Shown one piece after another: positions 36,757 through 43,819 of a stretch of 64,000 bases of DNA (position 1 is its first letter; each line of letters begins with the position of its first letter). The DNA comes from Cokeromyces recurvatus. Its lineage: Eukaryota > Mucoromycota > Mucoromycetes > Mucorales > Mucoraceae. The position numbers and the translations under genes are program-made. A model generated the notes under the pieces. The model had not been told where the DNA came from. It did not search any database and worked only from the letters and a program-made list of their open reading frames with translations. The stretch covers positions 1 through 64,000 of the forward strand of contig NW_026251388.1 of the NCBI RefSeq assembly GCF_025118155.1, written 5' to 3'.

Positions 36757-37449
36757 TTTAGACAATTTCATCAATTTATATTTTACACTATTATTTGAAT
36801 GTATATATTAATTACAGATAGAAGGGAGATTTATAACTTATTCAAGCAAGCAAGCAAGAAAAAAAAAACTCCTTCTCTACTGTAGTATGTGGCTATAATT
36901 CCTTTCTCCTATATGAGCTTTATATCTAAAAATACTATTTAATAACAAAATAAATATGAGTACTATATATACATATGTGTATGTATGTATGTATGTGTGC
37001 GTATGGTGGCAATGAAACTTATTTGTTAACATTCTTATTCCACTACACTCCTTATCTTTTTTTTTTTTTATGAATATATACATACACACACATATATATA
37101 TATATCTATCTATATATATATCTATATATACATACTCATATGCTTGCGAAAGGAGTATATATGTTTAGATTGAAATCTATAATGTCAATAGACAACAAAC
37201 ATTAGAAAGGATTCATTTAGTAATAAAGAGATAGATTTACAAAAAAGGAGAACTAATTTATAACAGTTCAACAAAAAAAAAAAAAAAAAAAAAGAATTAT
37301 TGAAAAAGGAGGAGTAAATAGAGGGGAACGAGAGTAATATAGAATTTAATATAAATATAGAAAACAAAAAACAAAAAAAAAAGAAGCTTTTTTCTTCGTT
37401 TTCTTTCTGCTGCTTATATTTATACAACAACAATAATAATAATAAAGTT
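35444..37449. other. 2 kb spacer rich in homopolymers and microsatellites
   Basis: Holds A50 (35748-35797), T41 (35929-35969), T41 (36713-36753), an AC/CATA microsatellite at 36151-36190 and repeated TATA/TATC tracts (36180-36192, 36398-36425, 37083-37135). No gene was seen on either strand. Confidence 0.6.
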
Positions 37450-38019
37450 ATGAAATCAACCTGTATTTTACCTTCACTTTCAGACATTTTGAATCCTTTG
37501 CCTCAGCAGGATTATAAATCATATCAACAAAGAAATTTATCTAATGCTAGACTTAAGGTTTCAAATTTATTGTTATCCAAAAATGATATAGTATATGAAG
37601 AAGAACCTGTTAAAGCAAAACGAAAAAGAGCTTCCAGTTCTCAATTGAATATCCTGAATCGTGTATTTGAACAAACATTTTTTCCTTCCACTGAGCTTAG
37701 AATAGAATTAGGAAGACAGCTTGGAATGAGTCCAAGAACAGTTCAGATCTGGTTTCAGAACAAGCGACAATCACTTAGAATGAAAGAAAGAGCAAGCTAT
37801 AACCATCTAATTCGTTCACCACCCATTTCGCCTTCATCTAATCATACATACTCATTTAATAATGCAAACCATCAAACAAAGTCGGTTTATAACACTCTAC
37901 CACCACTTAAATTATCACAGGCTTCAACTATCTTCCCTTTAACGCCTTCATCATCTGCTCAACCAAGTCCAACATCCTTCGATCATCCTATTATACATCA
38001 TGAATATTATAAATCATAA
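37450..38019 (+). CDS. Homeodomain transcription factor, intronless, 189 aa
   Basis: A single uninterrupted frame from ATG to TAA. The homeodomain is at residues ~56-115: a basic arm (KAKRKRASSSQL), helix 1 (LNILNRVFEQTFFPS), helix 2 (ELRIELGRQLGMS) and recognition helix 3 RTVQIWFQNKRQSLRM with the invariant Trp, Phe, Asn and Arg. The spacing is that of a typical 60-residue domain, not the TALE type. The C-terminal part is Ser/Pro/Asn-rich with SPPISP, LTPSSS and QPSPTS sites suited to proline-directed kinases. It resembles fungal Yox1/Pho2-like single homeodomain proteins, but the orthologue cannot be fixed from the sequence. Most genes here are interrupted, so lack of introns is mildly unusual. 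Confidence 0.92.
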   Translation: MKSTCILPSLSDILNPLPQQDYKSYQQRNLSNARLKVSNLLLSKNDIVYEEEPVKAKRKRASSSQLNILNRVFEQTFFPSTELRIELGRQLGMSPRTVQIWFQNKRQSLRMKERASYNHLIRSPPISPSSNHTYSFNNANHQTKSVYNTLPPLKLSQASTIFPLTPSSSAQPSPTSFDHPIIHHEYYKS

Positions 38020-40029
38020 AGTTAAGGAATGTCAAAAAAAAAAAGAAAAGACATCTTTATGTTCTTGCATACTTATGTGATTCCCCCCCCCTTTTTTTTA
38101 TTATCTTTTTTATAAATTGTTGTTGTTTACTTGCTTGCTAATTTTCGTGAGGAGAGTATTTTTTTTTTCTGTGTTTAATTGTTTTGTTAAAGAAATACAG
38201 AATAACATGATAGTAGTGATTTCTATAGCTACTGAAGTACATATTTATATGAAACTAATAAATTTTTGTATATGCAATGTTTTCAGATCAAGTTATCATA
38301 TTTGGCGATTTTGCTAAATTCATGAAATATGTTCAATGACTGCATTATATCTAATTTAACATATCTATTTTTAAGTAAATACAAAAAAAAAAAGTTAATA
38401 ATATGAAAAGATATGATGCTTTATTTTACTGAGCTTCGGTTTTTTAGTATCTTCGTTTATAGCTTGAAAGAATATTTATACGTATATAAAGATCATTCTA
38501 TTTTAAGGGTTCTATTTTTGGGAAACTATTAACTTTATAATACAAAATAGAATAAACGATGATTTACATTTATAATAAATAATATATACTTTACGCTAAG
38601 CCCTTTTTTTTTTCTTTTAATATCTATTAAATTAGAGACTTTATTTATGGAACCAAATGTTATTTATTCTTTTCCTTACTAATGATTATTCAACTTGATA
38701 AAAAAAAAAAAAAGGAAAATTTTTTGTATTTTAGCTTCAGTAATACCAGGCTTTCATTTCCCTCTTAATGATGTATATTAATCCAATCATCAAATAAAGT
38801 GGTTGGAAAATCAATTAAATGATATAATATGTATTAAGGAGTAAAAAATAATGACACACACACACACACGTTTTGCAGAGTATATAATATTGTTAGCAAA
38901 TAATCTTCAGTTTTATTTATAGTATACACATGTTAAATAGTAAATGAATGATAAATCAAATCAAGTGTAGAAGTAGAAAGAGTAAATTTAGTGATCATAA
39001 AAAAAATTCTTCTAAAAGAATTACACCAACAAGTTAATAAGAGTTGAAAAAAAAAAAACTACCTTTTAGATATTTGATCGAACCTAAAGTTTTCATAATT
39101 AATGGGTTATCTACATAATTATGATAATTTAGTAATTTATATTTGTAAAAAGTATATTAATCACTTGGTTGATTTAAGACGTATATAAGCTTAAATCCAT
39201 ACTATACTATACAGTCGATTATAAATATATAAATATATGTTTTGCTTTTAGTATAATCTTACAAAGAGAATCATCGTAATATTATGTATTTATTGCTTTG
39301 ACATGATAAATAAGCACAACATGTTATTAGTTACATAACACTGCTTATTCCCCTATTAGCTGTTTAATTTTATGTATAATCATTTCTTATCTAATGGGTA
39401 GTTAACACAGTTATCATACTGCAACTTTTTTTTTCCGGAAATAGACTGCAGCCACTACAGGGGAGAATATGATTTAGACAGGGCAAAAAAAAAAAATAAA
39501 TCATTTGCAACACAAATATAGAAAGAAAGAAAGAAAAAAGCAGCACATAAGCTACAGTTGATAGTGATCAATACTGATTTTTTTTTCTAGATGAACGACG
39601 CTGAGAACAGAATTATTGATAGTTACTCTAATAAAAAATTGATATGAGATGCTGAAAACTGTTTCTGTTCAACTAGAGATTACAAAAATTGTTTCAGTTT
39701 GTATTCTGACAGTTTGAATTTATTCTCCTTGCCCAATTTCATTCATTTGAGCCAATTTCTGCTGAACAAAGATTTTTTTTTTGACAGCGAATCATACTAT
39801 ATATAGAGTTCGAATGGAGGCAACAACTGCTAGAATACGATTAAAGAAGAATTTTATTTAAAAAATTAAAAAATGACCAATGAGCACATAGCATTTATAT
39901 ATGCTGTTTTGTCCTGGCCAGATCGCTATGAAAAAAAAAAGGAAAGAAAAACCCCTTTGGGATAAAAGGAAAAATGATAAAGTATATGTATAAGTGATGA
40001 TAATTAACTGCCAGAAAATCGTTATTGTA
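38020..40029. other. A/T-rich spacer downstream of the homeobox gene
   Basis: No gene seen. There is a short CA repeat at 38855-38868 and several A and T runs. Composition becomes slightly less A/T-rich after about 39,560, near the start of the decayed element that follows. Confidence 0.5.
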
Positions 40030-40265
40030 TTGAAAGAAGATGATGATCAGAGGGTTCAGGGATTTGGGAGTGAAGCAAGATAATCCATCTCCAAGCAGAA
40101 TTGCATATATAGAAGGCCAGCGTATAAGCCAGGCATCAATTGATTTTCTCACTTTCTTAGTAAGGAATGTTGATGGTAATAGGAGGTTCAAGAGATAAGA
40201 GAGTGAGTGGATCTTCAATAGATTTGGGGCATCTGAAGGCGGTTATGCATATACATCCAAAAATA
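40030..40265 (+). other. Coding-like remnant upstream of the Fanzor-like relic
   Basis: In the same reading frame and strand as the relic at 40409, codons from 40055 read RDLGVKQDNPSPSRIAYIEG, then RISQASIDFLTFLVRNVDGN, a stop, then SEWIFNRFGASEGGYAYTSK. The composition looks protein-like rather than random A/T translation. It may be upstream exons of the same mobile nuclease gene, or debris of another element. I do not recognise the domain. Confidence 0.3.
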
Positions 40266-40408
40266 CTATGTGACCGTGTGTGTTTGAATAGAAACTAGAA
40301 TTTTTCTCTCGTGTTTTTTAATTTTAGTAAATTGCACTTTAGAGAGTAAGTTTTGTTAAAAATATATATATATATATCTTTATAAAAAAAAAACAAACTA
40401 ATAGTAAA

Positions 40409-41456
40409 TTGTTGACAAACTATAGTATATCACAATTAATGCCAAACGGAGAGAATACAATCTTGTTCAACAATTATGTAAGGTCAGACGGGTTTGCAAT
40501 CGACTTTGTATTCAACAGACGACGCAAAGATAGTACCGTTAGATTACATGACTTGACACTCCAAGATTTTACTTATAGTGAAGTTGAGAGTACTTCTAGG
40601 CCTACCTTTATCAACCCTGGTAGGAAGTCTGTAATTATTGCGGCTGTTGGGTTGGGGGACTCCCAACAAATAAGAAGATGTAGTACGAAAGAATATTACA
40701 CTATGACTGGATCCAAAAACTATCAGAAAAAGATGGAAAGGCTAAAAAATGAGTGAGGTATCACGTCTATTGAATCAGAAATGCCTACGGCCAAGACAAA
40801 TCAATCTGAATTATACGACAAGTATGTAGAGTATATGCTACGCTACAGACAAGTTTTGTTCAATTTCTATGACTTTCAAAGAGCAAAAGATCGGGTTTAC
40901 GTATATCAACAAAGGCAAAAAGCGGCGCAGATCATGGTCAATATGATAATAAACAGTGGCAAGAAATATGACCGAAAGCAAAGGAAAAAAAAAGAGAAGA
41001 AGAAAGGAAAAAAATAGCTCATGTGTTCCCGAATTGATTGTGGCCAAGTAAGCCAACAGACTTTATTTTTTTTTTCACGTTAATTGACGTATTTCACAAT
41101 ATAGAGTAAAACGGAGGCCCGCAAAGTTTAGTCAAGATGCCACCAAGGTCCCGCTAATAGTTTTTGGAGCAGGAATGTTTGGAAAAGATGGCATAAATCT
41201 TAAAGGAAATAAATGCGGTGCTACTGGTGTTTTGTTGAGGGCGGTTAAGAGGAGGGAGAAAGAAGGTGATCTTTTGGCGATAACTATTGATGAGTTCAAG
41301 ACATCAAAAATATGCTACAAATGCTACGATGATTCGCTCAAAAAAGTAGAAAATATGAAAGGTTCCAGTGTTCTTGCTTGCAAAAACTGTCGAACACTGT
41401 GGCAAAGGGATTATAATGCTGCTAAGAATATGTCGCTCATATCGTCATATATCTAG
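40409..41456 (+). pseudogene. Fanzor/TnpB-like (OrfB-type) RuvC nuclease gene, inactivated
   Basis: Fanzors are eukaryotic relatives of TnpB, RNA-guided DNA nucleases carried by transposons. The first segment (to a TGA at 40754-40756) has GFAIDFVFNRRRKD and a RuvC-I-like block TFINPGRKSVIIAAVG, where the usual catalytic Asp (DPGR in relatives) is Asn, codon AAC at 40613-40615. In the same frame after the TGA comes a helical, basic segment ending in a Lys-rich run and TAG at 41015. A shift (possibly an intron 41048-41104) leads to KVPLIVFGAGMFG (about 41145 on), then AITIDEFKTSKICYKC with a Glu like the alternative catalytic Glu of Fanzors. The zinc ribbon CxxC...CKNC follows, then RuvC-III RDYNAAKNM with its Asp (41409-41411). 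N-terminal domains and element ends were not found. At least two stops and a lost Asp make it a relic. Confidence 0.8.
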
Positions 41457-42450
41457 AATGACTACGATCATCCTTCCATGTTCCTCCCCACTAGATCAAC
41501 TAGATCAATTTTTTAATTTTTTTATTTTTATTTTCATGAATCGCCGTAGTAAACACGGCTTCCCTTTTAGGGATTTAGATTTTTACAGGTAAACATCTGA
41601 AAAGCACTGTTTTTTTTCGTCTAAAACTAATTTCTTTTTTGTCTAAAAATCAATTTTAATTCATCCAAAAAAAAAAAAAAACTAACATCGCCTGTATTTG
41701 AAGTGTAAAAACTGTAGGTACAAATTACAATGTTATTTTCAAATTCTTCAGTATAGGTGCCATAATATTTCTAATTAAATATCAAAATATAAGCAGTAAC
41801 CTATATATCGAAAATCAAACATATACTACCTTATACCCGAGTGATAATGTTGTATATTAGCTCCTTTATCTTTGTTGTATCTCTTTTCGCAGTACATTTC
41901 ATTATCTTTTTTCTTCTTCTTCTTCTTCCTAATAGGGTCGTAGAGACTGAATAAGAAAATGTTTTTAGTTCCTGAGAAAGCCATACATAGATTTTTACTT
42001 ACATTCTCAGGGATATTTTATGAGTTTCTCAACATATCACCAATTAAAATACATTTTGCAATATTCTCTTCTATAAAACAAGCCAATTGACGAGGCTCGT
42101 CTTTATATATAAATATATTTTTTCCTCAAAATAAAACTATTAATAGCATTTAAAGTCAAGCTTTCTACCTTATTTACTTCTTAGTGAATGAAGAAGTTTT
42201 TTTTTTAATATTATGAGTCTGTGAAAGATTTTAAATTTTGTTATATTTTATAGTGGAATCTTTAACCCTTATTAAAGTTTAACTATGAACTGTAGTAGTG
42301 TTTGTGATATTGAATCTCCGCTACTTTCATATATACAAATATGTGAATGTGTGTATATATAATTTATTTTTTATTTTTTATATTACCAATAAGCCTTCAT
42401 ATTCCCTTTTTTTTTTTCTTTTTCCTTCCTTCCTTTGACAAAAGCTAATA
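41457..42450. other. Spacer upstream of the J-protein gene
   Basis: A/T-rich with a CTT microsatellite near 41917-41934. No gene seen, and no transposon terminal repeat flanking the Fanzor-like relic could be identified by eye. Confidence 0.5.
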
Positions 42451-43819
42451 ATGGAAATAAATAAAGATGAGGCACTTCGTTGTCTTTTAATTGCAAAAAA
42501 TCATTACGGAAACAAGAATTATGAAGCAGCGCTTCGTTTAACAAAGAAATCGCTTAAATTATATCCAACAGATGAGGCAAAAGAATTTTTAGCAAAAGCT
42601 GAAAAGGCTGCGAGTTCCACCTCTTCAACATCTTCCTCACCAAAGATGCCCTCGACTGAAGAAAAACCAAAGACAAAAGAAAGTTCATCGAGTAGTCAAC
42701 AAACAGCTGAAGTTCGAGAAATTTTGGCTTGTGGTACTGATTATTATAAAGTTTTGAAACTTGACCGTCAATGTACTGATGTCGAGATCAAAAAATCTTA
42801 TAGGAAGGTAATCTTACTCAGTTTAATGAACCAACTATAGTGTAAATCTTTTTCTTTTTTATTTATTTATTTATTTATTTATTTTTTATAGCTTGCTCTA
42901 AAATTCCATCCTGATAAGAATAAGACACCTGGTGCTGATGAAGCATTTAAACGTAATTAAATTGTTATATACATGTATATAAATATTTATAAACACAGTT
43001 CTTAATTCATTTCTTGTTATAGTCATCTCCAAGGCATTTACAGTTTTATCAGATCCTCAAAAGAGAGCCATTCATGATGCTGGAGGAGGAGATCCTGAGC
43101 AAAGAGGAGGAGGAGGAGGAGGAGGGGGATTTTCTGGATTTTCTGGATATCGAGCACAAAACTACGGAGCTTCACCATTTGGAGAAGAAATTTCGCCTGA
43201 AGACTTATTTAATATGTTCTTTGGGGGCGGTGGTATTAATATGGCAAACCTACATAGACAAGGAGGTGGAGGATTTTCGTTTGGTGGCCCAGCAGGATTT
43301 AGTAGTGCCACCTTTGTTGGACCTGGTTTTCGCGCTCGTACCTTTAATAGACAAAGACATTATCAACATCAGCAACAACACCAGCAGCAACAGCAACAAA
43401 GATCAGGATGGTCCATCTTTTTACAAATTTTACCACTTCTTCTTTTATTTGGTTATACTCTGTTTTCAGGTCTATTAACAGACGAAACACCCATCTTTTC
43501 CTTTCAATCGACTTCAGTTTATTCTCAACCACGTATGACATCAACACATAAAGTACCTTATTATGTAGAGCCTAATGCTTTTAGACCTTATCTTCAAAAT
43601 CATTATAAATTGTCTAAAGTTGAACAACAAGTTGAAATTGATTGGGTGCGCTCTTTGCAGCAATCTTGTTTATATGAACGTAAACAACAACAAATGAAAT
43701 TAAATAATGCTCGTGGTGCCTTTGGTTTTGTGGGTCGTGATGAGAAAAGATATCAAGAAGCTTTAAATATGAAATTAACAAGTTGTGAAGAATTAAAAAA
43801 GTTTGGAAATTATAAATAA
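42451..43819 (+). CDS. ER-membrane J-domain co-chaperone (DNAJB12/B14 type), three exons, 404 aa
   Basis: Exons 42451-42807, 42892-42952 and 43023-43819 total 405 codons. Architecture matches the DNAJB12/14 family. It has an N-terminal TPR-like helical pair (MEINKDEALRCLLIAKNHY, residues 1-50) and a Ser/Lys linker. The J domain is at ~109-170 (DYYKVLKLDRQCTDVEIKKSYRK, LALKFHPDKNK with the HPD that stimulates Hsp70 ATPase, then ISKAFTVLSDPQKR). Next come a Gly-rich and Gln-rich stretch, one membrane helix (WSIFLQILPLLLLFGYTLF) and the DUF1977-like end with PYYVEPNAF, EIDWVRSLQQSCLYER and CEELKKFG. The J domain faces the cytosol in this family and works with cytosolic Hsp70 in ER quality control. 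The intron between YRK and LALKFHPDK splits the J domain. Confidence 0.95.

What the first reader, a model, noticed from the sequence alone, without database searches (positions are those of the whole stretch)
40409..41456. Relic of a Fanzor-type RNA-guided nuclease gene in a fungal genome
Seen: RuvC-I-like TFINPGRKSV, VPLIVFGAGMFG, DEFKTSKIC with a four-Cys zinc ribbon, and RuvC-III RDYNAAKNM in order. Known: this order and the DEF(x)TS Glu beside the zinc ribbon are features of Fanzor/TnpB nucleases. Inferred: a Fanzor-bearing transposon was once active in this lineage. RuvC-I Asp has become Asn (AAC, 40613-40615), with a TGA and a TAG in frame. If the genome holds intact siblings, they would be candidate eukaryotic RNA-guided nucleases with flanking guide RNA.
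Basis: partly seen in the sequence, partly recalled or inferred. Interest (0 to 1): 0.85.

Follow-up and report, generated by a model that had tools for sequence, protein, structure and literature searches.

The report
Dead Fanzor1 gene beside guide-RNA core
This stretch is the broken back half of a transposon-borne Fanzor gene (a eukaryotic cousin of Cas12) in a fungal genome that holds many related copies, most of those checked followed by a conserved folded RNA that probably served as guide-RNA core.

Summary
Confirmed: window 40285-41716 is the 3' half of a Fanzor1-bearing transposon. It keeps the RuvC and zinc-ribbon half of the protein in three pieces, the right terminal inverted repeat and a TA flank; the N-terminal half and left end are missing. 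It is dead: the RuvC-I Asp is Asn (among the close copies read, only here), plus a TGA, a frameshift that exposes the TAG, and an early last stop. A 57-nt intron (41048-41104) was overlooked.

The unnamed 28-Mb fungal genome has 70 zinc-ribbon hits (60 over the cut-off). Several siblings keep all catalytic residues in open exons; one pair is 99.4% identical at different sites, so movement was recent, but no complete intact gene was proven. Named relatives are Mucorales proteins.

Just past the gene lies a two-hairpin RNA (41543-41573) with compensatory changes across subfamilies. Its first hairpin occurs 32 times genome-wide (0 in the control), 29 times just behind a Fanzor tail. I take it as the omega-RNA core; it has no Rfam match.

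Fanzor1 in Mucorales transposons has been known since 2013: a new member of a known kind. Unexplained: a conserved splice-donor-like motif between RNA core and the distant right end.

The parts
40285..41716 (+). remnant of a Fanzor1-bearing transposon (right part, with TA flank)
   Evidence: blastn to L025 and L028/L029 from 40285, to L026/L027 from 40384; right end read
40427..40753 (+). Fanzor piece a: WED end with RSDG motif and RuvC-I (Asp replaced by Asn, AAC 40613-40615); ends at TGA 40754-40756
   Evidence: 46% to sibling residues 431-543; 65% to P0001
40757..41014 (+). Fanzor piece b: RuvC stretch and Lys-rich tract; ends at TAG 41015-41017 reached through a frameshift
   Evidence: 48% to sibling residues 545-617; phase comparison
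41048..41104 (+). intron, GTAAGC ... ATATAG, 57 nt
   Evidence: counterparts of 52-60 nt in L025, L026, L028, L030
41105..41453 (+). Fanzor piece c: RuvC-II DEF (Glu), four-Cys zinc ribbon, RuvC-III RDYNAAKN; stop 41454-41456 early against sister copies
   Evidence: PF07282 2.2e-9; 55% to sibling residues 650-761; 77% to P0001
41543..41559 (+). hairpin SL1 of the candidate omega-RNA core
41560..41573 (+). hairpin SL2 of the candidate omega-RNA core
41580..41592 (+). TTTTTACAG|GTAA motif (splice-donor-like; also resembles the start of a terminal-repeat module)
41635..41714 (+). right terminal inverted repeat, ending ACTG
41715..41716 (+). TA flanking the right end (expected target-site duplication; the left partner is lost)

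Best explanation
A decayed, 5'-truncated copy of a transposon of the Tc1/mariner type (CAGT...ACTG ends next to TA) whose cargo was an intron-containing Fanzor1 nuclease, mobilised in trans. Shown: Fanzor1 homology, the lesions, right terminal repeat and TA flank, related copies at other sites, and a covarying two-hairpin RNA just behind the gene in this and other subfamilies. Inferred from the known family: in working relatives the RNA core runs on into the right end and the flanking DNA, which serves as guide; the Fanzor1-RNA complex cuts the empty donor site after a transposase has excised the element, so that repair restores the copy. This copy lost its 5' half and catalytic Asp and has drifted without constraint.
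For: PF07282. Sibling exon to SpuFz1 8gkh, 4.1e-5. Foldseek: seven hits at E<=0.001, all Fanzors. Named homologues all Mucorales. Copies and derivatives; terminal-repeat pattern 99 sites, 0 control; pair L042/L043 99.35% identical over 3389 positions with unrelated flanks. No third-position excess among the relic's close copies. RNA core: 81.0% of cells paired against 68.7% shuffled and 31.0-45.5% slid; covariation score 0.377 against 0.194, 0 of 500; 32 SL1 sites, 0 control, 29 of 32 lie 58-170 nt behind a Fanzor C-terminal hit on the same strand.
Against: No transcript data. Two of the five covariation measures do not beat the shuffles (pairs 252/500, pair types 151/500). Single-sequence folding is near chance in two of nine cores (L039 z 0.06, L053 z -0.68), and for L053 and L056 the best fold is not SL1 plus SL2. 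The structure model is poor in the RuvC part (mean pLDDT 60.2) and its hits have TM-scores of only 0.29-0.37. The terminal repeats of transposase genes were not read, so the mobiliser is unknown.
Confidence: 0.93

Rival explanations
1. The RNA core is not an omega RNA but a conserved C-terminal peptide or another 3' element of the gene.
For: The segment overlaps the end of the Fanzor reading frame in some siblings (e.g. L036, L042).
Against: Core lengths differ by steps not divisible by three (62, 63, 64, 65, 67, 70, 71 nt), pairs change on both sides, and in the window the reading frame ends 86 nt before SL1.
Confidence: 0.1
2. The gene is a Fanzor2 or a recent bacterial TnpB/Cas12 relative rather than Fanzor1.
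For: The short C-terminal piece alone matches TnpB- and Cas12-like chains, weakly (best E 0.0073).
Against: Introns, Mucorales homologues, sequence and structure hits to Fanzor1, RSDG/RTDG like the TDG motif reported for Fanzor1 (passage). No Fanzor2 profile was run.
Confidence: 0.03
3. The omega RNA is spliced: the conserved CAG|GTAAG is a 5' splice site, the terminal repeat supplies a branch point and 3' splice site, and splicing joins the two-hairpin scaffold to a short end plus the guide.
For: TT-N-CA-N-GTA invariant in the 20 cores aligned; GTAAGT and GTACGT at the same place in two distant Fanzor families; right ends carry AG 11 nt before the end in 17 of 17 of one type, with CTAAC in 14 of 17, and AG 12 nt before it in L006 and L008; the gene's own introns use like signals.
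Against: GGTAAGC also begins a repeated module of the terminal repeat itself, so shared descent may explain it. L031, left out of the 20, breaks the motif. The terminal repeat is kept at both ends for transposition, so its splice-like letters need no splicing role. No RNA data.
Confidence: 0.12

Closest known systems
Fanzor1 elements of Rhizopus, Phycomyces and Mucor (Bao and Jurka 2013, PMC3627910; passages and section 12 read)
   Same: Fanzor1 in the same fungal group; Fanzor-only elements with TA target-site duplications and mariner-like ends are described there (for other hosts)
   Different: The Mucorales elements described in the parts I read are MuDr-like or unclassified; no RNA core was described there. 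Sequence identity to those elements was not tested
Spizellomyces punctatus Fanzor1 and its 'ghost' loci (Saito et al. 2023, PMC10432273; passages read)
   Same: RuvC and zinc-ribbon order, conserved RNA between stop codon and right repeat, many copies, RNA-only loci
   Different: SpuFz1 RNA is about 90 nt and ends just past the repeat; here the core lies 110-221 nt before the right end
Parasitella parasitica Fanzor PpFz1 (PMC11423790; passages and section 5 read)
   Same: Mucorales Fanzor1, two-stem RNA; structural match to 9cf1 at 8.8e-12

Membership tests
Fanzor1 | Cas12f1-like TNB zinc ribbon | tested here: met
   PF07282 2.2e-9 on the window piece
Fanzor1 | RuvC Asp-Glu-Asp, with DPG at RuvC-I and Glu in DE(F/Y)xTS | tested here: met
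   Met in siblings L033, L036, L037, L041, L042, L043. In the window itself the first Asp is Asn: not met there. By the weak alignment, D383, E541 and D606 of SpuFz1 (residues named in a passage) fall on these positions
Fanzor1 | (T/S)DG motif of the WED domain | tested here: met
   RSDG in the window, RTDG in L042/L043; the motif is named in a passage of PMC10711439
Fanzor1 | closest solved structures are Fanzor1 | tested here: met
   8gkh 4.1e-5 by sequence; seven Fanzor chains, 7.5e-12 to 3.5e-10, by fold of homologue P0004. Model of low confidence
Fanzor1 | carried by a eukaryotic transposon | tested here: met
   terminal repeats with TA on both sides in L042, L043 and L058
Fanzor1 | omega RNA downstream, extending beyond the right end | tested here: inconclusive
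   covarying core found; expression and 3' extent not testable
Fanzor1 | RNA-guided DNA cleavage | not testable with these tools
   needs biochemistry
Tc1/mariner-type transposon | inverted repeats flanked by TA | tested here: met
   not every right end keeps TA (11 of 23, by eye)
Tc1/mariner-type transposon | own DDE transposase | tested here: inconclusive
   ORFs of 60 aa or more in the L042 and L043 elements look like Fanzor exons or short unassigned frames, but no profile was run on them; DDE_3 hits exist elsewhere (184), their ends were not read

The most novel reading that the evidence does not exclude
Guide RNAs of Mucorales Fanzor1 elements are matured by the spliceosome: an intron that begins at the conserved CAG|GTAAG and ends inside the right terminal repeat removes the transposase-binding sequence, so that a short two-hairpin scaffold is joined to the guide. 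This would free the guide RNA from the constraint of long terminal repeats.
Probability: 0.12. Interest if true: 0.85.

Novelty: new member of a known kind. Interest (0 to 1): 0.42.

Why it matters
The relic itself is ordinary transposon decay. What it leads to is more useful: one compact fungal genome holds a large, divergent and recently moving set of Fanzor1 elements, with a conserved RNA core that would let guide RNAs be annotated by sequence in Mucorales (in the passages I read, only PpFz1 of that order has a described RNA). The gap between core and right end, and the conserved motif in it, raise a directly testable question about how these guide RNAs are made.

Tried and rejected
Rejected: the 3' core as coding sequence. 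TTACAG as a 3' or recursive splice site: its last G is T in L038 (minus-strand element) and L039 and A in L054, while the GT after it is kept. A catalytic loss shared by the relic subfamily: Asn is private to the window. The TAG as a simple nonsense change. L042 and L043 as intact genes. Pairing between the U-rich motif and the right end was looked at by eye only and is not claimed. Rfam: no match at E<=1 in 39500-42500.

Rows dropped: 21 cores were located, 20 were aligned and counted; L031, whose motif reads ACAGATAA, was left out. Four rows of another subfamily (L053, L055, L056, L059) that fit the two hairpins less well were kept in the count. Alignment A2 without them was not counted. One search found a right end for 20 of 21 given (not L040); L003, L041, L053 and L057 were not given to it. 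Right ends were found by a pattern with up to 5 mismatches, so more diverged ends are missed. The genome searches score a capped list of candidates, so their counts are lower bounds.

Full report
Observation. The window is contig C12, bases 1-64000, of a 28.05-Mb, 64-contig genome that is not named. Piece c, 41088-41453, matches Pfam PF07282 at 2.2e-9, over the curated cut-off. The three pieces align to residues 431-543, 545-617 and 650-761 of a sibling gene of about 788 residues at 46%, 48% and 55% identity. Pieces a and c are 65% and 77% identical to database protein P0001. Nineteen homologues at E<=0.001 were found: 16 carry a species name (Parasitella, Mucor, Rhizopus, Gilbertella, Helicostylum), 3 (P0001, P0018, P0019) do not. 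Three of the genera were looked up and are Mucorales; Mucor and Rhizopus I take as Mucorales from memory.

Lesions. The copy lacks everything before residue 431 and the left end. Asn stands for the RuvC-I Asp only here; L025, L026/L027 and L028/L029 have VDPGRKS and L030 VDSGRKS. Piece a ends at a TGA. The TAG at 41015 is reached because the window enters the intron at 41048-41104 in phase 0, while L025 enters it in phase 2; L026 and L028 also stand at phase 0 and L030 at phase 1, so this tract has shifted in several copies. The last stop replaces a sense codon of sister copies. Differences between L025 and the window at codon positions 1, 2 and 3 are 19, 9, 8 (of 160 each) and 7, 4, 5 (of 105 each); the four other comparisons within this subfamily likewise show no clear third-position excess. 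That is decay without constraint. In the L043 group a weak third-position excess remains (e.g. 6, 2, 9 and 4, 4, 8).

Element. One search lists 11 DNA matches to 40400-41500: the window itself, five over the whole length (C9, and the contig pairs C21/C43 and C27/C18, which are duplicated stretches), one over most of it (C54), two over about 460 nt (C7, C17) and two over 81-93 nt. L031 and L032 (C7, C17) are internally deleted derivatives, alike over 1.1 kb. A pattern for the terminal repeat occurs 99 times at up to 3 mismatches against 0 for the reversed control. L042 and L058 end in ACTG next to TA on both sides; L043 has ACTG-TA on the right and ACTC-TA on the left. L042 and L043 are elements of about 3.4 kb, 99.35% identical over 3389 aligned positions, with unrelated flanks: recent movement. 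L042 has an in-frame stop at residue 348, L043 a 55-nt deletion. Other siblings (L033, L036, L037, L041) have RuvC and zinc-ribbon exons with Asp, Glu, four Cys and Asp, but their whole genes were not modelled. The genome has 70 PF07282 hits, 60 over the cut-off.

Family. The sibling RuvC exon matches Spizellomyces Fanzor1 (8gkh) at 4.1e-5; the whole 788-residue read-through at 8.3e-4. A model of Mucor flavus homologue P0004 (mean pLDDT 60.2, RuvC part mostly under 50) gives seven Foldseek hits at E<=0.001, all solved Fanzors from Guillardia, Spizellomyces and Parasitella, with TM-scores of 0.29-0.37. Because the model is poor, only the ranking is used. Bao and Jurka 2013 (PMC3627910; passages and section 12) list Fanzor1 families in Rhizopus, Phycomyces and Mucor and describe Fanzor-only elements with mariner-like ends and TA duplications. 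So this is a new member of a known kind.

RNA core. Between the gene's end and the right terminal repeat lies a segment conserved beyond the relic's subfamily. In 20 aligned cores (of 21 located) two hairpins pair in 81.0% of cells (shuffled 68.7%, 0 of 500; slid 31.0-45.5%), 25 cells change on both sides (shuffled 11.8, 0 of 500) and the covariation score is 0.377 against 0.194 (0 of 500). The number of pairs with double changes (6 against 5.5, 252 of 500) and of further pair types (15 against 13.7, 151 of 500) do not exceed the shuffles. Of nine cores folded alone, the window has z -2.90 and L044 -2.62, five lie between -1.17 and -1.96, and L053 (-0.68) and L039 (0.06) are near chance; L053 and L056 prefer another fold. 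A pattern for the first hairpin, up to one mismatch, occurs 32 times genome-wide, 0 in the reversed control; 29 of the 32 lie 58-170 nt downstream of a Fanzor C-terminal hit or 7 on the same strand (pairs chosen by eye, distances). The other three are C56:568218, C5:534317 and C20:315960. Rfam has no match at E<=1. I read this as the omega-RNA core; two stems agree with the SpuFz1 and PpFz1 RNAs as described (PMC11423790, section 5).

Open point. After the hairpins comes TT-N-CA-N-GTA, invariant in the 20 aligned cores (L031, left out, breaks it), usually TTACAG|GTAAG. More distant Fanzor families have a like motif: L006, L008 and L044 with TTTACAG|GTAAGT, L001 and L005 with TTAACAG|GTACGT. 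The pattern GATTNTTACAGGTAA is not specific by itself (89 sites, 34 in the control). The right end of the element follows 110-221 nt after the motif in 20 of 21 elements given. One reading is a long, unspliced omega RNA that takes in the terminal repeat, as Yoon et al. report for other Fanzor1 elements (PMC10711439, passages). The bolder reading is splicing: right ends of the main type carry AG 11 nt before the end (17 of 17) and CTAAC upstream (14 of 17), L006 and L008 have AG 12 nt before it, L001 at the very end. Against it, GGTAAGC also opens a repeated module of the terminal repeat, and the repeat is needed at both ends anyway. Two searches of the held library listed no paper on spliced Fanzor guide RNA as far as titles and abstract starts show; the library lacks most subscription journals.

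Mechanism. For better-preserved siblings the likely role is the one proposed for TnpB and Fanzor: a guide copied from the flank lets the nuclease cut the empty donor site after excision, favouring retention. This rests on the family (recalled), not on a test here. The transposase probably comes in trans: one search lists 184 DDE_3 hits, several with equal score and ORF length, but their ends were not read.

Noticed in passing
window 39834-40280: A dispersed repeat of about 445 bp (39 further matches, 81-94% identity) that stops a few bases before the truncated 5' end of the relic; its kind (SINE, MITE, other) was not determined.
   Followed up: partly
contigs C18/C27 (L029/L028) and C21/C43 (L026/L027): Nearly identical stretches on two contigs (100% over 9.49 kb; 99.5% over 6.99 kb): duplicated or allelic contigs in the assembly, so copy counts are inflated.
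   Followed up: no
right ends of held elements: By eye, 6 of 23 right ends are followed by CA instead of TA, 0 of 12 left ends; possibly chance.
   Followed up: no
G000 C56:568218, C5:534317, C20:315960: RNA-core matches without a Fanzor C-terminal hit close by, reminiscent of the RNA-only 'ghost' loci of Spizellomyces (passage).
   Followed up: no
G000, many contigs: At least 184 DDE_3 hits, several with equal score and 461-462-aa frames, so a recently active Tc1/mariner-type family is likely.
   Followed up: no
window 37318-38019 and 42439-43819: Flanking ORFs look like a homeodomain protein and a DnaJ-type protein (labels from memory on the ORFs); the relic lies between them.
   Followed up: no
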